Below are positions 4,299 to 64,000 of a stretch of 64,000 nt of DNA, in pieces. The translations under genes and the position numbers were made by a program. The notes beneath the pieces were generated by a model. The model did not search any database. It was not told the DNA's origin and worked only from the letters and a program-made list of their open reading frames with translations. How positions within the stretch are numbered: the first letter of the stretch is position 1; every line of letters starts with the position of its first letter. The stretch is from Mermis nigrescens. Its lineage: Eukaryota; Nematoda; Enoplea; Mermithida; Mermithidae. The DNA lies in assembly GCA_036768485.1 (NCBI GenBank), contig JAVLUZ010000340.1:7207802-7271801 (forward strand), given 5' to 3'.

Positions 4299-4706
4299 TC
4301 AACTAATTCCGTCATTTTCAAGTGAAATAAAAAGATACAAAACATAATTTGAGTTACTGAGATGATAAGTCCCATCAGTTTGAATTGTCCCTGGGAATTC
4401 ATTGTACCACTTTTCCAGTTTGCTTGATTGATAGAAAATAATTTCAACACATTTAGTCTGTGCATCTTTGACCACCCTAACAGTAGATCCAGGATCCCTA
4501 AGTTTCTCATTCTCCAACCTGTCAACTATTAAGAGTGTTTCATTTGAATTCTTATCCAAAATTTTGTTATTTGGGCACATTGCATTTCTAACATCTCTTG
4601 TATTGATGTGAACATTAAAAGGTTTATAGCTGTTATTGATGACAAGTTTTATATTATCCTTCACATAAGTAGACTGTTTGGCAAAAGAAACAGGATTGGC
4701 TGTCAA
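4299..4706 (-). pseudogene. MULE-type (Phantom-like) transposase fragment
   Basis: A 135-codon minus-strand frame carries KDNIKLVINNSYKPFNVHI, DPGSTVRVVKD, then EKWYNEFPGTIQTDGTYHL and YVLYLFISLENDG. In Mutator-like transposases the D of the (I/V)(D/Q)xDGTY block is the first catalytic Asp of the RNase H-fold DDE domain, and the region before it is the conserved DPGS(T/S)V linker. Only this central part is present; the second Asp, the Glu and the SWIM finger expected downstream are not found below 4299, where the frame ends. Family assignment comes from motif memory, not a search. The neighbouring minus frame at 4241-4525 is a shadow of this one. Confidence 0.6.
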
Positions 4707-4836
4707 CTGCCATTGTTAAGGATAATGAGCAAACAGCTCTGAAAAGACTTCTCTTGGAATTGTTACAAAACCACAAAATAAGTCATTCTATGCTGAGCTT
4801 AAACTTCAAACCAGTCAATTCACCAAAGATTGATAA

Positions 4837-5193
4837 AGCTGCAGATACAAGATCCATATAGCCAAAAAGTGTCATTTGTGCAGCAATATATTAAAGGCTA
4901 ATGATTACTTAGTGGGCGTCCAGTGTGACTTTTGCAACCTGTGGGGACACCCAAAGTGCATGGGATTGGACCAGGTTGTCTACAATGTGCTTAGGAAATG
5001 CATCGCCGAATCCACAAAATTCTTTTGCTCAAATTGCGTACCCAAGATAGATAGCCTGATTTTCATGGAAAAATGTATGGATGACATGGAGGCCCACTTC
5101 TGTGAACTAGAGGTGAAACTAGACACTGAACTCAATTTTTCATTGCTAACAACAATCCTTTTCTATCACAAATGCAACTGTTGTCATAAATAA
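4837..5193 (+). CDS. PHD-type zinc finger frame, retroelement ORF1-like
   Basis: The frame is open from 4837 and has no ATG before the finger, so it looks like an exon or a 5'-truncated gene. Visible Zn ligands fit C4HC3: CHLC (near 4870), CDFC, HPKC and CSNC. They are followed by a short charged helix-like stretch (MEKCMDDMEAHFCELEVKL) that could be a coiled coil. Single PHD fingers followed by coiled coil occur in ORF1 proteins of CR1/L2-type LINEs and in some transposon-borne chromatin readers; no reverse transcriptase is visible nearby, so I cannot decide. The MULE fragment on the other strand ends only 130 bp away and may be unrelated. Confidence 0.5.
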   Translation, partial: SCRYKIHIAKKCHLCSNILKANDYLVGVQCDFCNLWGHPKCMGLDQVVYNVLRKCIAESTKFFCSNCVPKIDSLIFMEKCMDDMEAHFCELEVKLDTELNFSLLTTILFYHKCNCCHK

Positions 5194-8632: not shown

Positions 8633-9025
8633 TTAGTTCCCGAACTTTTTTGTTTTTTGTGAACTCATCATCATAGCAGAGATCATATCATTTTTACCCA
8701 TAGGTTCATACTCGTAAAATATAACAATTAATTTTGGTTTCGTTATTATAGGTGCTTCACATTTTCTTTGAATATTATGTTGTCCTGATCCGAACTTGAA
8801 AAATGTTTCTTTTTTCTTAGCTGTTCTTCCTCGCTTTTTAGCAACTTTTTTCTTTTATCTCATTATCTACACGCTGTTCTTCTAAGACTGCCTGTTTTTG
8901 CATGACATTGGCATATTTGACCAATTTTTTCTCAGGGCCACGTTTTTTGGTTAAAATTTTCTCTTTTGTCTTTTCTATATTTACTTGAACCGTAAGTAGC
9001 GGATCATTGATAATTTTTGCTTTTC
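8633..9025 (-). pseudogene. Lys-rich coding remnant, unknown
   Basis: The minus strand reads LLTVQVNIEKTKEKILTKKR, then VMQKQAVLEEQRVDNEIKEK, changes register in an A-run near 8870, and continues as AKKRGRTAKKKETFF and IVIFYEYEPMGKNDM to a TAA at 8633. The long open stretches on both sides of one frameshift suggest real but decayed coding sequence, basic and probably nucleic-acid binding. It may be the 5' part of the gene whose exon-like blocks lie at 8120-8375. No homology recognised. Confidence 0.35.
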
Positions 9026-9600
9026 ACATTAATGAATCGAAAAAAATTGCTAGGAACAACAGACATTTTCCGAACATTCATTTTACAAGAGCTTCCTTTA
9101 GAGCAGAATAGAGTTGAAGAATTATTTGAGGCAACTCAGTAATCAAAATTTTTTGTTTTTCACTCTTAGCGAGTAGTAAGGAGCCCCCCTGCGCCTGTAA
9201 AATAGGGTTCCACTCTATGCTTGCCTTACAGGTTGGCCTACAAGCCATCTTCTTGGGGTTCTGCTTTTTCCATGGAGGAAAATTTCCCAGGGGGAAAATT
9301 CAATAGTGGAAAATTTCTCCGGGTGAATTTTTTGATGTCTTTTTGGTAATAGTTATGCAGGTCACCCTGGTCCCAATTCTATAACATACCCTATGCTTAA
9401 GCATAGGCTGCTGAACAAGCCCAGACGTGCCTAGAATTTTTTCAATCTCAGGCTGGATTTTTGATAAATGTGCCCAATCATGCCCAGAATTATGTGGGAC
9501 TAGTCACCCAGGCTGGGGGAGGGGAGCGCCATCCAGGGCCAGGGGAGGAAAGTGCGGGTGACCACCTTTGGCTACCCCCGCTTATATTTATAGAATTGGA

Positions 9601-20848: not shown

Positions 20849-20947
20849 AGTACCGGTCAGTACCAGGGTGGTACCAGCGCCGGTACTATGGTACCAGTAT
20901 CAGCACCTTTGTACTGGTACCAGTACCTTGGTACCAGCACTGGTACC
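20849..20947. repeat. GGTACC-rich degenerate tandem repeat
   Basis: GGTACC, GTACTGGTACC and CCAGTACC motifs repeat roughly every 10-14 bp. The same motif resumes after the nested M1 at 21213-21228, so the MITE interrupted an existing subterminal repeat. Such GTACC-rich subterminal runs may be transposase-binding sites; that is inference. Confidence 0.7.
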
Positions 20948-21212
20948 CACACCTGGGCGTGGGGAGTTTGGGGGGTATGCACCCCCAGAAACCAAAATAC
21001 CCCCCCCCCAGAAATCAAAATACCCCCCCAGAATTCAATTTTTGGAAATTTTTTTCGTTTTTTTCGCAATTTTTTGATGCCAATGGATAGTGCTTGATGA
21101 GAAACGTCGAAAAATGGTGTTTTTATCGCCATACCACCATTTTTAAGGCCATTTTTCGACCTTCAAAAAAATCTTGCACCCCCCCCCAGAATTTTCTTGC
21201 TGCCCACGTATG
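20948..21212 (-). mobile_element. M1 MITE copy with perfect 8-bp duplication
   Basis: Begins CACACCTGGGCGTGGGG and ends TTGCTGCCCACGTATG. The octamer CTGGTACC flanks both sides exactly (20940-20947 and 21213-21220). Confidence 0.9.
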
Positions 21213-41059: not shown

Positions 41060-43160
41060 CAAATTTTGAGATTAAATATGTAGGTAACAAATTATCCCTA
41101 AGTCTTTACCTTCCAGAACTTTTGTCCATTAGCATGTAGGTTTCAAATTTTAAATTTCGCTTTTATTGTAAAATATTTATTTTAATGTTGAATTCAAAAA
41201 TAAATTTTTTTAACGTGAGGAAAACATCAGGCTAGTCCCGTGGCAGAAAAATGAACGTATGTTCGAGTGGAGAATTCCGACCTTCATCAAGTATATGTGG
41301 GGTAGAAGGAGAAGGTTTGCTTAGGAAAAGCTTATTATTCAGTTTATTTATTGATTGTTCATTAATTAATTTGTAATTAATGAAGCCCATACCAATCCAT
41401 ATGATAATAAATTTTATCAAACATTTAGCAATTCAGCATGTTATTATGTTCTTGCATTTTTCTTGTAGTTTCAATTCCATATTCGATTTCTTGATATAGA
41501 GTAGTTGAAACATGATTTTGGGGTTTAACAAAGATATGCTCGTTTAGGCGTAGAGTGGGTGTAAGGTTCGATGAAATCGTGGTTAGTCTCAATTTATTGT
41601 TAGCACAAAAATTTCAGGACTATGTACGTACATAGCTCAGTTAGCTAGCATCGAATTCTATTTTAGCCCAAAATTTTTTAGTATTTAATGGAGTATGTAG
41701 AAATTATTAATCCCCCTACCTGTTATAAGTAGTTTGTCCATTATTCACTGTGATTAGGCCGTCTTTTTCGAGTTTTAAACCTGCATAAAATAATCTTTAT
41801 ATTTAAAGTTGATGGTGAACCAATACGTTCGAGGTCAATTAGATTTTCGTGAAGAATAAAGTATCAAAATCTGACATTGAATAACGAAGTTATGTCTCAT
41901 TATACAACCCTAGGAAACTCAATGCGTATCCTTCCGAAATCTTAGGACTATGCATATATGGCTTAAAGTAGCTTAATATGGATTTCGTTATTCGCAGAGC
42001 TGGAGAAGTTTCCTATGGCTGCAGCTCATTGATATGCGATCAATTGGCTGCACCAGTTCGCCTACCGAATCGAAGCTGGGCCGACACCTCATGGCGATCA
42101 ATGGTGTTGATGGCGTGAACAGCTTATCCGATTGTCGGTACGATCGGATGCATTCGAAGCAATTGTCAGGGATTGATCTGGCGATCAGCCTTTTTTGAAA
42201 CAAGCCCGACAAATATTGAGCGCCAACGTTATGCTTCTTTGAGATACATACACTGTCTAGGGAGCGTTTAGAGGGGGTATTACACCTACTGAACATCAAA
42301 AAGCTGATGGCTAAGTTTATAGCCATAAAGAACATTGCTACATGGCGTTTTTGTTTCAGAAAACTAACTATATAGTCTGTTTGATCAAAACGTACCTTTG
42401 GCTCTAATTGTCTCTTTCAGAGTCTGCAAAGGATTCATAACTATTTTCCCGACTTAGAAAAGGGTTAAAGCTATTTTTATTGCACTCAGGAGCGGCGAGA
42501 GAGCTGTGTGCAACAAGGTCTAAAGTTTTATACTGTCGAGCATACGTGGGCAGCAAGAAAATTCTGGGGGGGGGGGGTGCAAGATTTTTGAAGGTCAAAA
42601 ATGGCCTTAAAAATGGTGACAGAGCCGATAAAAACTATTCGACGTTTCTCCCATCAGCACTATCCATGGCATCAAAAAATTGCGGAAAAACCGAAAAAAA
42701 TTTTCAAAGATTGAATTCTGGGGGTATTTTGATTTCTGGGGGGGGGTATTTTGGTTTCTGGGGGGTGCATACCCCAAACCCCATGGAGTGTGCTATCGAG
42801 CATTTAAGCTAAAAATCAGCCATCTCCAGGCTATTGCTTTTCACTTCTTCCTGCGAGTTTGAACCTGCCAATCTATAAATAGCCTGGTAACTAAAACATT
42901 TTTGTACATTCTAAAATCTGGCAACTTAATTGCTGAAAATGCTTAAAATGGGAATCCACTATAACTTAATTAATGAATTGGTAAAAACCATCCATAATTA
43001 ATGAAATAAAAAATTCATGACATTAAAATCAATGCATCCGCGTTCATACTATACTAGCCGTGCTGCAATTTAAACATTAAGTATAGAAATTTGATAATTT
43101 TCAATCGAGTTCACCGGGCTTTTAATCACTTACTACTTAAAGTTGATGGGACCCTCAATT
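41060..43160 (-). repeat. Arm 2 of the ~2-kb inverted duplication
   Basis: Reverse complement of 19190-21830, without the hAT-type insert of arm 1 but with its own M1 copy at 42541-42792. The 42000-42230 stretch is GC-richer and aligns with 19890-20110; frames differ between arms, so coding is not supported. Confidence 0.75.
42541..42792 (+). mobile_element. M1 MITE copy
   Basis: CATACGTGGGCAGCAAG to GGAGTGTG. Flanks CTGTCGAG (42533-42540) and CTATCGAG (42793-42800) match at 7 of 8. Confidence 0.85.
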
Positions 43161-52962: not shown

Positions 52963-52977
52963 CATAAGGGTGACCAC

Positions 52978-53238
52978 CAGACATGGGCAGCAAGAAAATT
53001 ATGGGGGTTCAAGATATTTTGAAGGTCAAAAAGTGGCCTTAAAAATGGTGGTATAGCAATGAAAACACAATTTTTTGACGTTTCTCATCAAGCACTATCC
53101 ATTGGCATCAAAAAATTGGGAAAAAAACAAAAATATTTCAAGAATTGAATTTCTGGGGGGGTTTGATTTCTGGGGAAAGGGGGGTATTTTGGTTTCTCGG
53201 GAGTATATACCCCCAGATCCCCCCAACGCCCAGGTGTG
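52978..53238 (+). mobile_element. M1 MITE, first of a head-to-tail array of four
   Basis: CAGACATGGGCAGC to GCCCAGGTGTG, flanked exactly by GTGACCAC (52970-52977 and 53239-53246). Confidence 0.9.
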
Positions 53239-53246
53239 GTGACCAC

Positions 53247-53512
53247 CATATGTGAGCAGCACCAAAAGTCTGCGGGGAGGGGTTGCAAGATTTTTCAAAG
53301 GTCAAAAATGGCCTTAAAGATGGTGGTATGGCAAAAAACATCATTTATTAACGTTTCTCATTGAGCACCATCCATTGGCATCAAAAAATTGTTAGAAAAA
53401 CAAGAAAAAATTTCAAAAATTGAATTCTGAGAAGGGGTATTTTAATTTCTGGGGGATGGAGTATCTTGGTACCCCTGGAGGGGGTGCAAACCCCCCCTCA
53501 CACTCAGGATTG
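53247..53512 (+). mobile_element. M1 MITE, second of the array
   Basis: CATATGTGAGCAGC to the worn end CTCAGGATTG. GTGACCAC before it and GTGACCAT (53513-53520) after it. Confidence 0.85.
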
Positions 53513-53520
53513 GTGACCAT

Positions 53521-53776
53521 CATACGTGGGCAGCAAGAAATTTCTTGGGGGGGTGCAAGATTTTTTTCAAGGTAAAAAAATGGCCTTAAAAATGGTGGTA
53601 TGGTGATAAAAACACCATTTTTTGACGTTTCTCATCAAGCACTATCCACTGGCATCAAAAAATTGCGAAGAAAGCGAATAAAATTTCCAAAAATTGAATT
53701 CTGGAAGGGGCTGAGGGTATTTTGGTTTCAAAGGGGGTGCATACCCCCCAAACCTCCCCCCACGCCCATTGGTGTG
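53521..53776 (+). mobile_element. M1 MITE, third of the array
   Basis: CATACGTGGGCAGC to GCCCATTGGTGTG. Preceded by GTGACCAT and followed by a shortened GTGAC before the next copy. Confidence 0.85.
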
Positions 53777-53781
53777 GTGAC

Positions 53782-53996
53782 CATACGTGGGCAGCAAGAA
53801 AATTCTGGGGAGAATGGTGCAAGATTTTTTTGAAGATCAAAAAATTGTGATATGGCCAAAAACACCATTTTTTGATGTTTCTCATTGAGCACTATCCATC
53901 AGCATCAAAAAATGGCAAATAAAAATTCAAAAATTGAATTCTGTGGGGGGATATTTTAGTTTCTTGGGCGCTGCATACCACCCGTGCCCAGGTGTG
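53782..53996 (+). mobile_element. M1 MITE, fourth of the array
   Basis: CATACGTGGGCAGC to GCCCAGGTGTG, with internal deletion relative to the others. Followed by GTGGTGACCACC, again the array octamer. Confidence 0.85.
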
Positions 53997-56096: not shown

Positions 56097-56248
56097 CCTT
56101 ATAGTATTACACAGTACTATATTCGATATATATTTATTTTATTTATTTCCAAAACAGCGCAAGAACGCATACTAGACGTTCTAACACACCTGTTTTACCT
56201 TTTAATTATCTCAATCAATACCTGAAAACAAAAAGAAAAACTTTTCGA

Positions 56249-57640
56249 ATGTTTTCAGACAAGAAGAGGAACGAGTCTCACTCAGAAGACTTGAGTGATG
56301 AGGGAAACAATATGTATAAGGACGCATCAGATCCAACAGCAAAGCTTGCAGCAAAGACTGCAAGGGTGAAAATTTCTGATGCCCAGGATAATGAATCAAA
56401 GAATCCTGAAGAAAACACTATCAGAATCCTTGAAGTTTTGGTCTAAGTCAAAATCTGAATTTGAAAAATATTCATGAAAAAACTCATTTGAAAGATCATT
56501 TGTCTGAAGCAAGTGAAGATTCGGATGATGAAAATTTTTTGAAAGAATTTAAAGCTTTCAAAAAAGCTAAAGGTCTTGTTAGTAAACAGCAAAGATTTGT
56601 TGAAGTTTGTTTTCAACATTTGAAATGCTTTGCTGGTGGAACCGATGTTTGTATACGCGATTACTTTAGTAATTTCGAACATCTTGCTTTGTGCTATGAC
56701 ATAAATGAAAATGAAATGTTAAAAGCGTTTGTACAACTGCTACAAGATGCAGCATTATCAAGCTTTTAAAAACATGTCTAGCGCGCAAAAAGAATTGTAT
56801 TCTAATTTAAAGAATGCATTAATGATTGTGATTCTCAGAAACTAGCAATACATACATTGCTAAAAGTAAATATTATGAAAGAAAACAAAATCCAAGTGAA
56901 ACGGTACAAGGATTTTATGACAAATTATGGCATTTAGCATCTATAGCAAATCCTGAGAATCAAACTTCTCACCTAGAAATTAGTGTCTACGATCAATTTA
57001 TTACTGGTCTAAACCCCAAAATTAGGAAATTTATTTTATGTTCGGGTGCTCCAGCTAAACTGGATGAGCTCCTTGAAAAAGCTAGAAATATTGAGCAAGC
57101 TAACAAAACTGAAATGGATGAAAAACCATCAATTTTGGTTAATAACATTTCTGATTATTGGTCTAAACCCATTAATTGTCGACAAAATTTTGTATCGTTT
57201 GACTCAGATGTTGCACAAACATCAGGTAATAGTGATACAAATAAACAAGATTTGCATAAAGAATGGTATAGTAAAAGGTATGTAAATACCAATAAAAAAT
57301 ACCATGATAGAAATAAAGTACCATATTTGAATGAATCTGCTGTTTCCTCAGATGCAGATGAGGTTAAACATAAAAATTGTAGAGATAATTGTATGCATAT
57401 TTGTGATCATCGACATCTACATTCGCCTAATTGACAATATTTGTTCATAAATTGAGGTTTTCAAAAACCTTTGAATTCACCAAATTTTTGTAATCAAAGA
57501 AAACCATGGAGTATTCCTAATAGAAGGTATGATCCTCATGCTTTTTGCAATTTTCACAAAACGTCAGGTCATTGGACAAATGATTGTTCCACTGTGAAAG
57601 CTGTTCAAAAAAGCATGAATGATGAAATGTGAATCCCCAG
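56249..57640 (+). pseudogene. LTR-retroelement Gag, broken
   Basis: Pieces in changing registers: an acidic N-terminus (56249-56446), a middle part with QRFVEVCFQHLKCFAGGTDV (56461-56769), and a part with ETVQGFYDKLWHLASIANPE and DQFITGLNPKIRKFILCSG (near 56885-57110). The last resembles the Gag blocks in which a short FYxxLxxLA and FxxGL...(I/V)R pattern repeats in Ty3/BEL capsids. The nucleocapsid-like CNFHKTSGHWTNDC (near 57545-57590) is a CX2HX4HX4C variant knuckle. Stops and frameshifts separate the pieces, so it is inactive. Strand and order agree with the LTR. Confidence 0.65.
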
Positions 57641-57771
57641 TGTTTTGTAAACAAATTTGCCAACTTATTCACAAAATCCCACATCAAATAATGCACCATT
57701 TTTGGTAAATACACCTACAATAACTGAGTTTTCTAATCAGGAATCTAGTAACTTTAATATGTTGCTACAGA

Positions 57772-58733
57772 ATGATAAAAGAGCGGAATTGCAAAATTCA
57801 GTTTGGAAAAGCAATAAAGAGAGTGCATGATTCCAATTTTAATTCACACATTATTTTATTTGCCACAGATGAATCGAATCACAAATTATTTAAATGTGAT
57901 TTAAAGCGTTCATCAAAAAACAAATGTCCAGCTGAATATGTGCATTATATTTCAAAGAGAAATATAAAATCAGCTGTTGAATTCACAAGTACTGAGAGTT
58001 TAAGGAAATTAAATGATAAATTTCATACCTGTAAAATGACATTGCAGGAAAAGATCGATTTTTCTTACCAAACACAGCTGCCTATGCTGCTGCCAGGAAA
58101 AATCGGAAATAAAAATATTTCCACGTAGTGCAATTCAGAATCACAATGCACACTTGTTAGTAAAAACATGATGAACAATGTGTTCGATATCGCATGCAAT
58201 AATAAAACACACATCAATGAAGTCATAGTAGCAAATCATGAAAGCATGAAAATTTTTAGAACCCTCAATTTTTATTTTGAGATTGATGATGAGAAAATAC
58301 CATTTCATGCAAGAATTGTCAAGACACTAAATGGTGATTTTATCATTGGCTCCGATATACTCGGAAATACGAGTATAAATACAATCATTAAAATGGCAGA
58401 ACGTTGCATTGAAATACATGGCAAGAAATTTTCTGCGTATAATCCAGGAAAATGCTCATGCAAAAAACCATTAGGTGTTAGTAGAATAACCATCCAAACT
58501 GCTGTAAAAATGATTATTCCGCCTGAAATGTCAAAAAATAATACCTGCGACGGTATATGTTGAAAAACCACAGGCCTCCATATACATGATTGAACCTGAA
58601 GAAAATCAGGCTGAAATTTTTGTTGCAAAATCAATATTTGGTTGCAACAAAGAAATGATAGCAGTATGTCTATTAAATACTGCTGATAACTGTATTTTAC
58701 CTTTGACGATGATCTCTTCAACCTAACACGCAT
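57772..58733 (+). pseudogene. LTR-retroelement protease/linker remnant
   Basis: 57772-58128 is a 118-codon frame of uncertain role. 58168-58563 has FHARIVKTLNGDFIIGSDIL, the C-terminal FxxxI(I/L)GxD(I/F)L block of retroviral-type aspartic proteases; the expected D(S/T)G is not recognisable. From 58560 the register changes and reads MIEPEENQAEIFVAKSIFG, then VCLLNTADNCILPL, like the linker that precedes reverse transcriptase. Sequence stops there: no RT, RNase H or integrase is present. Confidence 0.6.
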
Positions 58734-58915: not shown

Positions 58916-59059
58916 TTTCGGATTTCGGATAGAAAAATGAGAAAAATGTCTCTGAATTTCAGAGAACACGTAGCCAATATTTGTACATCCGACTCGCAAT
59001 ATTCTAACAGCTCTTTCTGGAATTCGGAGGGTTTCTCCAAGCTTTTCTCCTCGTTATAC
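58916..59059 (-). pseudogene. Polinton PolB exon 7: Exo III region
   Basis: Reads YNEEKSLEKPSEFQKELLEY, then CESDVQILATCSLKFRDIF. YCxSDVxIL is the Exo III motif (Y-x3-D) of the 3'-5' exonuclease domain, with Tyr and Asp present. Recognisable similarity ends near 58916. Confidence 0.75.
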
Positions 59060-59387
59060 CTTAAAATGACGGAAAAATTCATTAATAATAAAAATAGAGA
59101 AGACTCACTCAACCATTAAAATACATATATACGTCTAATGTATTAATAATCAACGTATATATAAAAAATATGTAATTTTATTGAGAAAACGAGGCAACGT
59201 GAAGGCAGAAATGAATGAAATTTGTGCCTAACTGTATAATGAAATAATTTTAACGCTATTTTAGCGCAAATATAAGTTTTTTATGACCCAGACTCACTGG
59301 CTGCCCCTCTCTGGATCGGTCATATATTGCATTTATGGACATGACTCAAGTTTTTGAAATTAATGTAACAAATGAAGTTTTTCTTAC

Positions 59388-59624
59388 CAGGCTAGAAAAG
59401 CATTGCGTTCATCTTCTTCATTCCATCTGGGTCATAGAATTCTGCATCAGGTAACGCTCCAGCATAGTCCCAACTTTTGAGGCGGTTCAATAAATGCGGA
59501 AAATGGCCTTTTTTGAGCTCTGTAATACTGAAAGTCTTTGGAAACGCACTGAGTTTCATGGGTAGATAGTTCAGCGTGTCAATAATACAAATGCCGCCCG
59601 CCTCCAGCATCAATATTTCCAGGC
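59388..59624 (-). pseudogene. Polinton PolB exon 6
   Basis: Reads EAGGICIIDTLNYLPMKL, FPKTFSITELKKGHFPHLLN and ALPDAEFYDPDGM. This is the well-conserved (I/F)IDxLN(F/Y)LPM ... ELKKGxFPHxxN ... (Y/F)YDPD stretch of the family. A one-step register change near 59410 separates it from the exon end. Confidence 0.8.
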
Positions 59625-59808
59625 CTCAAATTAAAACAAATAACTAATAAGCAAAGCACTAAGCAACAATTTTATCACCAATATTTCTAAATAAAACAAA
59701 TTTCTCAATAAAACAGCCAAGTTAAAAAAATAATCACGTTTTTCATCCTGAGAATTCCCAAAAACAGTCCAACTAAAAAATAAGTATTTGTATCAACACA
59801 TAAAAATG

Positions 59809-59810
<2 letters not shown>

Positions 59811-59841
<31 letters not shown>

Positions 59842-59843
59842 CA

Positions 59844-59890
<47 letters not shown>
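59811..59890. repeat. (TTA)n microsatellite in a polymerase intron
   Basis: About 26 TTA/ATT units with one CATCAT interruption, near the donor of exon 5. The Asn run on the minus strand is a translation artefact. Confidence 0.95.
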
Positions 59891-59891
<1 letters not shown>

Positions 59892-59901
59892 TTGATAGTA
59901 C

Positions 59902-60255
59902 CTTGAGTAATAACTTTTGGGGCTATCGTTTTCTGTTTGTGGAGGTAATCCAGAAGGAATTGCGCATCATAACCACGGGCGTTGTGCGCCATGGTGATGG
60001 CTCCAACGATTTTGTTCCAAAAATAACCACTTTCCGAAATTGCACTGCACATTTTTGCCCATGAAGATGTGCTGGTTTCCCCACCACATTTGGTACAGCT
60101 GCCAAGCTCACAACCCTTACAAACGTCGCACAGGCGGTAGGCAACACTGCAGTTTGGGATATGCTTCATAACCGCCATTTTGACGTCCTGTCGGGTCTTG
60201 AACTTGAAGAATATAAAAATGGCCGCTTTCCAGTGTCGCACTTGTCCTTGATTGT
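59902..60255 (-). pseudogene. Polinton PolB exon 5: Exo I and Exo II region
   Basis: Exo II is intact: ITMAHNARGYDAQFLLDYL. The Exo I place, normally FFDFE-like with catalytic Asp and Glu, reads FIFFKFKTRQD, so both acids are replaced by Lys. Between them lie paired cysteines (CDVCKGCELGSCTKC), typical of Polinton polymerases. Loss of Exo I would abolish proofreading even without the frameshifts. Confidence 0.8.
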
Positions 60256-60326
60256 CTAATAAATTAATAAAATTAGAAAAAATAAAAAAATGTGGGCTTG
60301 AAAGAAATGATATTAAGTTACTGTGT

Positions 60327-60665
60327 TAAAAATACAAGAAAAATAGAATATGATTAAGTTATGAAGAACTCAGCATGAAAATTTTGGGGGAGGGATTTTA
60401 AGTGATTTTTTCAGGACAAAATATATCAATTTTGAGTTTCTGACAATGCTCTGAGAATAAAAAACTAAAAAATACATTAATAAAACTAAAAAATACATTA
60501 ATAAAACCATACAAAGAATGGAATATGTTACAAATAAAATACAAGAAAAATAGAATGTGATTAAGGTATGAAGAAAGAAACATGAAAATTTTGGGGGGAA
60601 ATAACATACCCTGGTAGAACCGAAAGTAGCGGTTAAGCAATTCTGACAATGCTCTGAGAATAAAA
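60327..60665. repeat. ~210-bp direct repeat within a polymerase intron
   Basis: AATACAAGAAAAATAGAAT.TG, ATGAAAATTTTGGGG and TTCTGACAATGCTCTGAGAA occur at 60327-60462 and again at 60538-60665, a partial tandem duplication of intron sequence. Confidence 0.8.
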
Positions 60666-60798
60666 ACCAAAAATTCTGGGAAAATATGAACTTAGGATGC
60701 TTATCATTTTTTCTGGCAGGAAATCCTTCTTTAATCTCCTCCTCAAGTTTACATAATGCACAGTGTATTAAAAGAGAGCATACAACAAAAACAATTAC

Positions 60799-61025
60799 TT
60801 TCATGTAACACTGGTGATTCTTTTTGTCAACCATAGCGTTACAGGTCCGGCAAAATACCTGGTGGCACCTGTGCTGCTTCTGGTGCCTCGTTTTGACGAA
60901 CTGGCCACAATGTGAACAACGCTTTAGTGAGCTGCAAATCAAAGCCGTCTTCTGAATATTGCCGCTTACCTCATGACGATTGGCCCAGCGTGTGGTTGGT
61001 GTAGCAAGACGTACTTTGGAAATAT
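60799..61025 (-). pseudogene. Polinton PolB exon 4: Cys/His-rich region
   Basis: Opens in the register YFQSTSCYTNHTLGQSS, meets a TGA near 60970, and continues in another as KTALICSSLKRCSHCGQFV, then CRTCNAMVDKKNHQCYMK. Zn-binding-type CxxC/HxC pairs precede the exonuclease in Polinton polymerases. Confidence 0.75.
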
Positions 61026-61397
61026 CTAAAAAATTGATAAATTTGAAGAAAATTGTAAAAAAGTGAAAATACAAATATTAATAATTTAAAGCAGAGTCAT
61101 TAAATGGTTGTATAAATTTAAAAATGAATATAAAGCTAAAAATCACACATGGAAGAGTAAAGCATTGATAAAAACTGTTTATTTATTATTTAATTCTAAT
61201 ACATGCTTCTAAATTAGACTATTTAATTTATTTTTATCTGATTATGAAACACTATTATTTTTTCAGTAAAGTTAGGACTATAGACACTTTTAGGTAAATA
61301 TTTACCTATTTATTTTCATTAAATAACGAGGTGCCCTATCATACTATTCAATTTTAAAAATTTCAATCGCTCATTTGATAAAATCAATATTTATTAC

Positions 61398-61690
61398 CTA
61401 TTACAATGTGGGCACTTCTTCCATTCCTCAAACGGGCAAGGAGTCGGCAAACAACAGCATGGGCACCCGCTCTTGATGCACCGGTGGTCCTCCTGGTTGC
61501 TATACCCCTTATTACACTTATCACAAAAATACGACCAACCCATGAAAGCCGTCATGCACGTGATAACGTCAAAATGATTGTTGTGATGATACAAATGAAT
61601 AATTTTCTCGGCATTGGGACCTTTCCAAATGGGCAAATTGAACGTGTAGCGAGAAAAAATTTTGATCTGATAATCGGGCGCTAAGTAATC
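61398..61690 (-). pseudogene. Polinton PolB exon 3
   Basis: Reads DYLAPDYQIKIFSRYTFN, IIHLYHHNNHFDVITCMTAF, SYFCDKCNKGYSNQEDHRC and CPHCNR. The NNHxxVIT.M..F ... YFC..C..GY....HRC pattern is diagnostic of Maverick-type PolB. Confidence 0.85.
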
Positions 61691-61699
61691 CTGAATTTG

Positions 61700-62040
61700 T
61701 TTTTGAGAATAAGTTGAAGTTTAAATGAAATAACTTTTAAGACAAAACTTTTCCGGAAAAATTTATATTATAATTCATAAAAACATGTAATAAATAATCA
61801 GTCATAGTTGAGAAAAATTTATACAATTATATTGCAATATATAATTTTAATTCATAAAAAACACAAAAAACACAACCCCTTGACATTTTTGAGTAATAAA
61901 TAGTAAATTTGCGGATGATTGAGCTAGTATGATACAAATACTACATAATTTTTGAAGTGATATAAACCTAAGCCTCATATTTAAGAAATAAATAGCGCAT
62001 GTATGAATGATTGAACGAATACATTTATTCTAAAATACAG
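61700..62040. other. Intron 2 of the polymerase gene
   Basis: AT-rich, non-coding; no repeat or element recognised. Donor GTATATAA at 62048-62041, acceptor ATTCAG at 61691. Confidence 0.6.
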
Positions 62041-62048
62041 TTATATAC

Positions 62049-62246
62049 TTGAATTTGTCGAGCTTCATTTAAACTGGCTTTTCCTGTAAGTTCGCCTAGT
62101 CCCAAATCAGTAAGTAGTTTCTGAGCCGGTTGCCTTTGCATTGCATTTCGATAGTCAGCAATAATTTTAAACTGTACATGCTTGTCTAGGCGAGCTTTAG
62201 CAACAATGACAGCTCTTGCCAAACACAGATTGTCGTCATTTTTTAT
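62049..62246 (-). pseudogene. Polinton PolB exon 2
   Basis: Reads IKNDDNLCLARAVIVAKARL and YRNAMQRQPAQKLLTDLGL. I(Q/K)N.D(N/D)(L/I)CLARA(I/V)V is a conserved N-terminal signature. 66 codons, open, in phase 0 with both neighbours. Confidence 0.85.
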
Positions 62247-62249
62247 CTT

Positions 62250-62650
62250 TAAAATTTGAGCAATAACATTTAACAAAAATTTTCCCTCAAATTGTATTTT
62301 TACATATTTATGGGTACATTATATTAAAAAGAAAAATTATTAATCATTGATTTATATTTGAGCACGTATTTCCGGAACTTTTGTAGTTCGGGAACTACAC
62401 AGTTACGTATCAATTAATTGTTTAGGAACTATTTAAAAAAGTTATTTATGCATTGATGTATGGTTAACGCTTCATGAAAAAATATTCAGTTACTTCTCAG
62501 AATAAAGAGAAATTTGCAAACTAATTTAAACAACAAGCACTAAATTTTTTTAGTATTTTTTCGAAAATTAAGAGCGGTAATATTGTTGAGAAATTGATTT
62601 TCGCCCATTTCACTAAATTTCCCAAATTTTCTAGCAAAAAACTTATTTGC
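62250..62650. other. Intron 1 of the polymerase gene
   Basis: AT-rich. Contains TTCCGGAACTTTTGTAGTTC and GGGAACTA near 62388-62415, the same palindromic GTTCCGGAAC-type motif as the promoter region. Confidence 0.6.
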
Positions 62651-62654
62651 TCAC

Positions 62655-63190
62655 CTGAAGAAAGCAGCCACCGTGGCCGCTGTGTCTAGAGAACCAGTTG
62701 TCAAAGTTAACAATCCTGGTCATCGTCCTTTCGTAATATCCTTTACTGCCGCCTCTCAGTTGTTCAACAATAACCATTTTGAAATTCAACGATTCGTCAA
62801 ATCCAAACTTGCGTTCCGACTGCTGGACCTTTTTGACCACCAATAAAATTTTATCGGCCGTCATAGCCTCCATTGCCGTAAATGGGACTAAAACGACCCG
62901 GCCCAAAGTTGGGTGTTGAAGCACGACGCCAACTCGGTCGCGGTCGTTCCTTCTGTCGCCTAATTTGCGATTTGAAATATCGTTTAAAATTAAGGGCAAA
63001 TGTCGAGGAGTAATTTCAGACACATTCTTGAATCGAATATTGAACGCAATAGCTTCAGAATTGAACTGTTTCACGCGAACCCGTTACTCCTCGCCAATAT
63101 TGTAAAATCGGAAATTTTGCGACCGCCTCCTACTTGCTCGCTGAAATCTTTGCCAAAAATAAGGTCCCAAAATTGAGGTGAGCTGAAATT
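62655..63190 (-). pseudogene. Polinton PolB exon 1 region (N-terminal domain)
   Basis: Reads VGVVLQHPTLGRVVLVPFTA, MTADKILLVVKKVQQSERKF and GHGGCFLQ before a GTGAGCAAAT donor. The VxFxxxxxLTAExILxxVxxVxQSxxxF pattern is the N-terminal domain shared by Polinton polymerases. A register change near 63072 joins it to FSSPQFWDLIFGKDFSEQVG upstream. The link from 63190 to the ATG at 63508 is not resolved. Confidence 0.7.
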
Positions 63191-63556
63191 CTGCTGCTCG
63201 GCTGTCGATAAACGTAAATTCAAAAATTTTGCAAATATAAATGAAATAATAGTTGACTCGTTAATCCACAATCAACTATCAATCAGGATTTGAAGCGAAT
63301 CTTTCGTAATAATGGGCTCAGTCAACTGCTGCAAGCTTCTGTCCTCAATAATCGTAGCCCAAAATTTGGCTGTAATGGCGTCTCAACAACCCTGCTGGCC
63401 AAACGTGATGACTTTTTGCAATAAAACTCCAATTCATTTCTTGTTTCCAAGCCATACTTTCAATTCAATAACGTTTCGTAAATCAGCAAATTTGTCCCAC
63501 TTGGCCATGATGACTAATAAAACAAATAAGAATGAGATTCCCAAACTCGCTTCTAG

Positions 63557-63564
63557 TATTTATA
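63557..63564 (-). promoter_or_regulatory. TATA box of the polymerase gene
   Basis: TATAAATA on the minus strand, about 50 bp upstream of the first ATG (63508). The extended CTATAAATAC is the form seen in insect heat-shock genes. Confidence 0.55.
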
Positions 63565-63574
63565 GGCAAGATTC

Positions 63575-63600
63575 TTCTGGAACTTTTTCAACCAATCAGA
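63575..63600. promoter_or_regulatory. Heat-shock-element-like site and CCAAT box
   Basis: GATTCTTCTGGAAC contains TTCnnGAA (63575-63582) with a neighbouring half-site; ACCAATCA lies at 63590-63597. Both are upstream of the minus TATA box. Confidence 0.45.
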
Positions 63601-63620
63601 ATTGAGAGTGAGTCATTCAT

Positions 63621-63646
63621 AGTTCCGGAACTAAGAGTTCCGGAAC
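63621..63646. promoter_or_regulatory. Two GTTCCGGAAC palindromes (HSE-like)
   Basis: AGTTCCGGAACT and GAGTTCCGGAAC lie 15 bp apart between the two divergent TATA boxes. TTCnnGAA is the core of heat-shock elements, which need three or more alternating 5-bp units; the palindromes supply inverted pairs. Confidence 0.5.
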
Positions 63647-63648
63647 AT

Positions 63649-63656
63649 TATAAATA
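63649..63656 (+). promoter_or_regulatory. TATA box of the rightward gene
   Basis: TATAAATA on the plus strand directly after the palindromes, 30 bp before an ATG at 63686 and 95 bp before the ATG at 63751. Confidence 0.5.
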
Positions 63657-63750
63657 CATTACTATTGAATCGAAATAAAACAAAAATGTATCTTTTCTTA
63701 TTCGTATATTTTACTACAGCGTGCACGCTTAAGTGCATATACAACAAAAC

Positions 63751-64000
63751 ATGCACATTTTGCAAAAAACTAGACACCTATGCAAATTTATCTTGAAACG
63801 TATTCTGTTTTTTCTCAAAGACAGCTGCGACTTTCAAATTTCAGACTGGAAAAACTTTTCTTCGCTTTTTCCGCAATTAGATTCTATGAAATTTATGCCA
63901 TACTGTAAAAATTGTTTGAAAATTGATGAAAATTTTAATGGTTTAAAAATCGAAGGCCGATGTTTAGAAAACGACATGAAATGTAGGCATAAAGAAGAAC
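63751..64000 (+). CDS. Unrecognised Cys-containing frame running off the window
   Basis: Open from ATG 63751 to the window end (83 codons): FFLKDSCDFQISDWKNFSSL, MPYCKNCLKIDENFNG, CLENDMKCRHKEE. Cys/His spacing suggests metal binding. An overlapping 36-codon frame from 63686 (MYLFLFVYFTTAC...CTFCKK) could be the true start followed by a frameshift. It is divergent from the polymerase and shares its promoter region, so it may be another gene of the same element. Incomplete. Confidence 0.35.
   Translation, partial: MHILQKTRHLCKFILKRILFFLKDSCDFQISDWKNFSSLFPQLDSMKFMPYCKNCLKIDENFNGLKIEGRCLENDMKCRHKEE

What the first reader, a model, noticed from the sequence alone, without database searches (positions are those of the whole stretch)
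58916..63508. Intron-rich Polinton-type protein-primed DNA polymerase
The minus strand carries the family signatures (CLARA, NNHxDVIT, HNARGYD, ELKKGxFPH, YCESDV) in correct order, on seven exons whose GT/AG borders keep phase. At 59902/59624 and 59388/59059 codons split across the intron are restored exactly where the family continues. Polinton polymerases are, to my knowledge, usually single-exon, so this is either an intron-bearing Polinton lineage or a copy resident long enough to gain or domesticate introns.
Basis: partly seen in the sequence, partly recalled or inferred. Interest (0 to 1): 0.75.

Follow-up and report, generated by a model that had tools for sequence, protein, structure and literature searches.

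The report
Intron-bearing Polinton polymerase gene, decayed copy
The window holds a broken front half of a DNA polymerase gene from a virus-like jumping element; its relatives in the same genome form a family whose polymerase gene, unlike the neighbouring virus-particle genes examined, is cut up by introns.

Summary
The introns are inherited features: de-duplicated copies elsewhere in the genome carry a GT..AG pair at the same coding position (intron 5: 16 of 17; intron 6: 15 of 17; maximum in 1000 shuffles 2 and 4), and DNA homology runs through introns 1-2 at 90%.

This copy is dead: stops and a frame change in exon 1, a frame change in exon 6, ExoI DxE changed to KxK, a break at 58940, no palm motif in the window. 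It is not a domesticated gene.

Of 58 copies examined, 26 have all of introns 5-7, 20 have none, 6 are mixed. The intron-bearing copies look like one lineage (weak tree support). Its exons show mainly third-position change, and some copies are 99% identical. In 3 of 6 flanks examined, polB follows protease and packaging-ATPase genes. Those genes, and the capsid-type and TATA-binding-protein (TBP) genes, show no introns where examined.

Splicing itself is inferred; there is no RNA evidence. My reading is that polymerase production needs nuclear splicing while the virion genes do not. TBP genes lie near many polB copies and were unexpected.

The parts
62655..63508 (-). exon 1: N-terminal part of PolB; four in-frame stops and a frame change
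   Evidence: 84% (residues 1-152) and 72% (112-304) aa identity in two frames to the single-frame exon 1 of copy L010
62247..62654 (-). intron 1, 408 nt, GT-AG, coding nt 411, phase 0
   Evidence: same coordinate in L010, L012, L021 and L031
62049..62246 (-). exon 2 (NLCLARAV)
   Evidence: tblastn blocks
61691..62048 (-). intron 2, 358 nt, GT-AG, coding nt 618, phase 0
   Evidence: same coordinate in L010, L012, L031; absent in L017 and L021
61398..61690 (-). exon 3 (NNHFDVIT and Cys-rich part)
   Evidence: 50-57% aa identity to intronless copies
61026..61397 (-). intron 3, 372 nt, GT-AG, coding nt 911, phase 2
   Evidence: same coordinate in L016, L035, L017, L031
60799..61025 (-). exon 4 (Cys/His-rich part)
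   Evidence: tblastn blocks
60256..60798 (-). intron 4, 543 nt, GT-AG
   Evidence: equivalent intron at coding nt 1131, phase 0, in L010, L011, L013, L014; window coordinate by eye
59902..60255 (-). exon 5 (ExoI changed to FKFKTRQD; ExoII HNARGYD)
59625..59901 (-). intron 5, 277 nt, GT-AG, coding nt 1501, phase 1; holds a (TTA)n microsatellite
59388..59624 (-). exon 6 (ELKKGHFPH); frame changes inside it
   Evidence: 60% aa identity to L004, 86% to L010
59060..59387 (-). intron 6, 328 nt, GT-AG; relatives: coding nt 1739, phase 2
58940..59059 (-). exon 7, first part only (YCESDV); homology stops at 58940
63674..64000 (+). start of a small predicted membrane protein gene (opposite strand), in two frames; runs off the window
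   Evidence: 59% and 94% aa identity to L040:2505-2960

Best explanation
The locus is a dead, 3'-truncated copy of the polB gene of a Polinton/Maverick-type element. It belongs to a multi-copy lineage in this genome whose polB carries at least seven introns with splice sites mapped here (about a dozen interruptions in all). SHOWN: the exon order, the shared GT-AG sites, the damage in this copy, the near identity of some copies, and intron-free neighbour genes in the stretches examined. INFERRED: the introns are spliceosomal and are removed by the host; they arose once in this lineage and were later lost singly in some copies; they persist because Polintons are thought to copy themselves as DNA (established knowledge), so introns travel with the element. 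LIKELY CONSEQUENCE (inference): PolB can be made only where nuclear splicing happens, while capsid, protease and ATPase genes can be expressed from unspliced transcripts. The window copy itself makes no polymerase.
For: Seven colinear blocks. Same-coordinate GT..AG in de-duplicated copies: intron 5 in 16 of 17, intron 6 in 15 of 17, intron 7 in 8 of 15; maxima in 1000 shuffles 2, 4, 2. Of 58 copies examined, intron 5 is present in 30 and absent in 27, intron 6 in 33 and 22, intron 7 in 31 and 21, the rest undetermined. 89.8% DNA identity of L040 to window 61356-63999, through introns 1 and 2. Codon-position differences 245:171:795 over 4250 codons in 14 overlapping pairs. Copies 99% identical over 3.2 kb, introns included. 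Protease (Peptidase_C5) and ATPase (Pox_A32-like) genes upstream of polB in L042, L065, L066, with no excess beyond 1 nt between their aligned pieces except one repeat insertion.
Against: No RNA evidence, so splicing is inferred. Trees do not firmly show one intron lineage: 65/79 (exon D) and 77/94 (exon E); in the exon F trees the intron-bearing rows need 2 changes or are not held together in the best rooted tree (AU p 0.43). Three of six flanks examined (L039, L040, L067) showed no protease or ATPase match. No integrase was shown beside an intron-bearing copy. The capsid-type protein has no Pfam or PHROG match. Terminal inverted repeats and target duplications were not sought.
Confidence: 0.88

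Rival explanations
1. A host gene: one Polinton polB was domesticated, gained introns as host genes do, and spread as a gene family.
For: Intron-rich structure; exons with mainly third-position change; no capsid-type, protease or ATPase genes within 8 kb of copy L010.
Against: Protease and ATPase genes lie directly upstream of polB in L042 (same subgroup as the window), L065 and L066. Palm motifs DVCSLYP and KLMLNSFWG and a split LYLDT/DS are kept in L010, with DVCSLYP in 10 further intron-bearing loci. The window copy is broken and truncated.
Confidence: 0.05
2. Pseudo-introns: separate repeat insertions into a once intronless gene that happen to begin GT and end AG.
For: Repeats do land in these genes: a ~290-nt G-rich repeat with an apparent short target duplication interrupts the protease gene in L066. 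G-rich repeats of the window also match parts of L014, L029, L032 and L034.
Against: That insertion shows neither a shared position nor a GT-AG border. The polB intervals recur at one coding coordinate in diverged copies, far beyond shuffles.
Confidence: 0.02
3. Opposite direction: the intron-bearing state is older within this group and the intronless clade N1 (L003-L008, L027, L028, L044-L047, L052, L055, L056) lost all introns at once, for example through a spliced cDNA.
For: In the rooted exon F tree N1 lies inside an unresolved fork with the intron-bearing groups (97/92 for the joint clade). Single losses occur: L016 and L048-L050 lack intron 5, L053 lacks intron 6.
Against: Exon D and E trees put the intron-bearing rows on one side of a branch (65/79, 77/94); the data do not reject one clade in exon F. 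The more distant intronless group N2 and the mollusc-type outgroup proteins fit an intronless ancestor, though their gene structures were not examined.
Confidence: 0.25

Closest known systems
Polinton/Maverick elements (polintoviruses)
   Same: Protein-primed-type PolB with exonuclease and palm motifs; neighbour genes match adenovirus-type protease (Peptidase_C5) and Pox_A32-like ATPase; a related intronless copy lies beside an rve + chromodomain integrase.
   Different: polB carries seven mapped introns.
Intronless Polinton polB copies of the same genome (L001-L008, L027, L028 and others)
   Same: Colinear protein, 28-60% identity in the window's exon blocks to L001-L008; many also have a TBP gene near by.
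   Different: No introns at the three positions tested in 20 of 58 copies.
Group I introns in polinton-like viruses (PMC12220804, passages seen)
   Same: Introns inside genes of polinton-like viruses.
   Different: Those are self-splicing group I introns in a short unannotated gene; here GT-AG introns in polB, and Rfam found no family in the window.
Intron-keeping genes of endogenized giant viruses (PMC11244446, passages seen)
   Same: An exception to intron-poor endogenous virus genes: KDM4-like genes keep a multi-exon structure.
   Different: Those are captured host genes in giant viruses; here the introns are in the element's own replication gene.

Membership tests
[quoted passage not shown]
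   For the lineage: exon and palm blocks in L010/L012, motifs. For the window copy: Exo part only, ExoI altered, palm absent. Protein priming itself not tested.
Polinton/Maverick | adenovirus-type cysteine protease | tested here: met
   Peptidase_C5 in L065 (E 1.4e-4, over cut-off) and L066 (E 0.0074, under cut-off); homologue in L042. Not found beside the window copy within L039.
Polinton/Maverick | FtsK/A32-type packaging ATPase | tested here: met
   L066 Pox_A32 E 2.5e-4, under cut-off; homologues in L065, L042.
Polinton/Maverick | retroviral-type integrase (rve), often with chromodomain | tested here: inconclusive
   Present beside the intronless relative L028 (rve E 4.3e-12, Chromo 5.3e-8); no tblastn match in the flanks of intron-bearing copies examined; the planned genome search did not complete.
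Polinton/Maverick | double jelly-roll major capsid protein | tested here: inconclusive
   A 424-aa protein beside L028, 51-53% identical to partial proteins upstream of intron-bearing L017 and L021; identity as capsid rests on gene order and recall; no Pfam, PHROG or PDB match.
Polinton/Maverick | terminal inverted repeats and target-site duplication | not tested
   Element ends were not sought.
Spliceosomal introns | GT-AG borders at conserved coding positions and phases | tested here: met
Spliceosomal introns | removal shown in RNA | not testable with these tools
   No RNA data.
Domesticated host gene | intact, conserved reading frame at this locus | tested here: not met
   stops, frame changes and truncation

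The most novel reading that the evidence does not exclude
A Polinton lineage with a split expression plan: its replication gene polB has become dependent on nuclear splicing, making element replication a host-licensed step, while virion genes stay intronless and may be transcribed with the help of an element-encoded TBP. Introns arose once in polB, were carried along by DNA-level copying through many copies, and are being lost piecemeal.
Probability: 0.3. Interest if true: 0.82.

Novelty: new variant of a known kind. Interest (0 to 1): 0.6.

Why it matters
Mobile elements that copy through RNA lose introns; DNA-copying, virus-like elements need not, but large intron sets in their own replication gene look rare. 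This genome holds intronless, partly intron-bearing and intron-rich polB copies side by side. Intron gain and loss, and any regulatory role of introns in a virus-like element, could therefore be tested within one species. TBP genes near many polB copies raise a second testable question, about how these elements direct their own transcription.

Tried and rejected
Considered and rejected: domesticated gene; repeat insertions posing as introns; a second small exon at 63508 (it is part of exon 1, which is one 304-aa frame in L010). The Secretin_N_2 Pfam hit on the exon 5 frame is read as an artefact of the (TTA)n run. Searches that gave nothing useful: viral contigs with exon 6, TBP and L028 PolB; phages (one weak hit); tRNA and Rfam; PHROGs. 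The search for homologous proteins with exon 6 gave one 124-aa metagenome protein, 68% identical. It reads across the place of intron 6 without a gap, so its gene lacks that intron or was reported without it. One search had an index slip and is discarded; one search is the mended run. In one search (31 rows) the intron-bearing rows did not group as one. In the exon F trees rows with a match span under 110 or 119 were left out, and near-identical rows were dropped.

Literature: searches (listings seen), plus passages of PMC12220804, PMC3671162, PMC6431247, PMC11244446, PMC11071296, PMC9683012, PMC10680173 and PMC12210455. None of these describes spliceosomal introns in Polinton polB or a TBP gene in Polintons. 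Subscription papers are mostly not held; a nematode Polinton polymerase paper (PMC10748475) is not held and might. So 'not in print' is not claimed.
Full report
What is there. On the minus strand from 63508 to 58940 lie seven blocks homologous to Polinton-type family B DNA polymerase. Unbroken PolB frames from the same genome (L001-L008) align to these blocks in order, with almost no missing residues between blocks. Six intervals of 277-543 nt separate the blocks; each begins GT and ends AG.

Are the intervals introns? I mapped donors and acceptors separately onto the coding coordinate of an intronless relative (p28, the L028 frame), without joining exons. Intron 5 falls at coding nt 1501 in 22 of 28 distinct loci, intron 6 at 1739 in 22 of 28, intron 7 at 2147 in 14 of 28 (the window appears there twice, as L009 and WIN, and is counted once). 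With near-identical copies removed the figures are 16 of 17, 15 of 17 and 8 of 15, against maxima of 2, 4 and 2 in 1000 shuffles of the border neighbourhoods. Intron 1 (nt 411) is shared by the window, L010, L012, L021 and L031. Intron 2 (nt 618) is shared by the window, L010, L012 and L031 but absent from L017 and L021. Intron 3 (nt 911) is shared by the window, L016, L017, L031 and L035. Intron 4 (nt 1131) is found in L010, L011, L013 and L014. The DNA of the L010 flank runs through introns 1 and 2 of the window at 89.8% identity. These are shared, inherited introns.

How widespread is it? An exon 6 search of the genome scored 150 of 667 candidates. After the window itself, the 17 best matches (86-68% identity) all lie in open frames of 79-95 aa, about the size of the exon. 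Long unbroken frames appear from 66% downward. I classified 58 copies: 38 with loci that I picked from the lower part of the list for their varied frame lengths. Of these, 26 have introns 5, 6 and 7, 20 have none of the three, 6 are mixed, and the other 6 are not determined at all three positions. The mixed ones are L016 and L048-L050 (intron 5 missing), L053 (intron 6 missing) and L060 (about 50 nt of excess at two positions, none at the third). The counts are lower bounds and not a random sample.

One lineage? Exon trees were built one exon at a time. Exon D and exon E trees place the intron-bearing rows on one side of a branch, with weak support (65/79 and 77/94). The exon F tree of 47 rows does so too (56/8), needing 1 change for intron 7, 2 for intron 6 and 4 for intron 5. 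The smaller exon F tree did not, and in the rooted exon F tree the intronless clade N1 falls in an unresolved fork among them (AU p 0.43 for one clade). A single gain with later single losses is the simplest reading; loss of all introns in N1 is not excluded.

Is the lineage alive as an element? Between related intron-bearing copies, differences at codon positions 1, 2 and 3 total 245, 171 and 795 over 4250 codons (14 overlapping pairs, three exons), so the exons evolved under constraint. L010 and L012 are 99.1% identical over 3.2 kb, introns included, on different contigs with different outer flanks. L021-L025 are about 99% identical, but some of these may be haplotype duplicates. L010 keeps DVCSLYP, KLMLNSFWG and LYLDT/DS, the last split by an interruption. 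Against L028 and L001 its polB shows about a dozen interruptions.

Which element? Upstream of intron-bearing polB in L065 and L066 lie a capsid-type gene, an adenovirus-type protease, an A32-like ATPase and a fourth gene; in L042, of the window's subgroup, the protease, the ATPase and part of the fourth gene. L039, L040 and the short L067 gave no protease or ATPase match. The aligned pieces of these neighbour genes are continuous to within 1 nt, except for one ~290-nt repeat in the L066 protease and a 28-nt overlap in the small gene of L042. Introns are thus concentrated in polB in the stretches examined. An integrase with chromodomain was found only beside the intronless relative L028. The capsid label is by gene order and recall.

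TBP. Directly upstream of polB in L010 is a 182-aa single-frame TBP gene (PF00352, E 3.6e-36; also similar to solved TBPs, best E 1.4e-23). The genome holds at least 150 matches (1661 candidates, 150 scored). From the length of genome covered about one would be expected (my arithmetic: 150 x 24 kb in 524 Mb). Five of the window's close relatives (L010-L014) have it 5.1-6.7 kb upstream on the same strand. In the window's element the TBP gene is split by about 8.3 kb, beyond the window's edge.

The window copy. It is a fossil: four in-frame stops and a frame change in exon 1, a frame change in exon 6, ExoI FKFKTRQD where L010, L011, L012 and L014 have DFETRQD, and a sharp end at 58940. Its exons 6 and 7 still differ from L010 mainly at third positions (9:3:20 and 1:1:4) while exon 5 does not (22:23:36), so decay is not old throughout.

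Mechanism. Polintons are thought to copy as DNA (established knowledge), so introns survive copying. An intron-rich polB can give polymerase only after splicing, which happens in the nucleus; the intronless neighbours need no splicing. This makes polymerase production a step that depends on the host. This is inference; no RNA data were available.

Novelty. In the papers found and the passages read, introns in such elements are group I (PMC12220804) or lie in captured host genes of giant viruses (PMC11244446). I did not find spliceosomal introns in Polinton polB or a TBP in Polintons described, but much of the literature is not held. I file it as a new variant of a known kind.

Noticed in passing
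L040:3431-3976 (-); genome-wide: TATA-binding protein genes (PF00352) beside polB: 37 of 147 places within 12 kb of a polB exon match, in both intronless and intron-bearing elements. A TBP in Polintons was unexpected.
   Followed up: partly
window 56105-58563 (+): Chain of gag/retropepsin-like frames in several reading frames just beyond the polB break; no Pfam match over cut-off; the likeness is by eye and recall.
   Followed up: no
window 8871-9110 (-): Fragment 45% identical to the gene between ATPase and polB of L065: remnant of another such element.
   Followed up: no
window 42534-42782, 52975-53970, 20941-21212 and elsewhere; L066 844-1125: G-rich repeat of about 270 nt, many copies in the window, matching parts of several polB loci and inserted in a protease gene with an apparent short target duplication.
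   Followed up: partly
G000 C48:9506535/9531021, C221:102562/127048, C721:31692/37792: Inverted pairs of near-identical intron-bearing polB copies, tail to tail 24.5 kb apart (same spacing on two contigs) and head to head 6 kb apart.
   Followed up: no
L060: A distant copy with about 50 nt of excess at intron 5 and intron 6 positions and none at intron 7: possibly very short introns.
   Followed up: no
L040:2957-3427 (-); L039:230-700 (-): A 157-aa protein between TBP and polB, kept in one frame beside the window copy at 87% identity; no Pfam match.
   Followed up: partly
L040:4584-4979 (+): Frame with a weak HMG-box match (MATalpha_HMGbox, E 0.0034, under cut-off), outside the shared unit.
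   Followed up: no
window 4299-4715 (-) and 4837-5193 (+): ZSWIM1-3 RNaseH-like domain (E 2e-10) and a PHD-finger-like frame (E 1e-4, under cut-off), probably of another mobile element.
   Followed up: no
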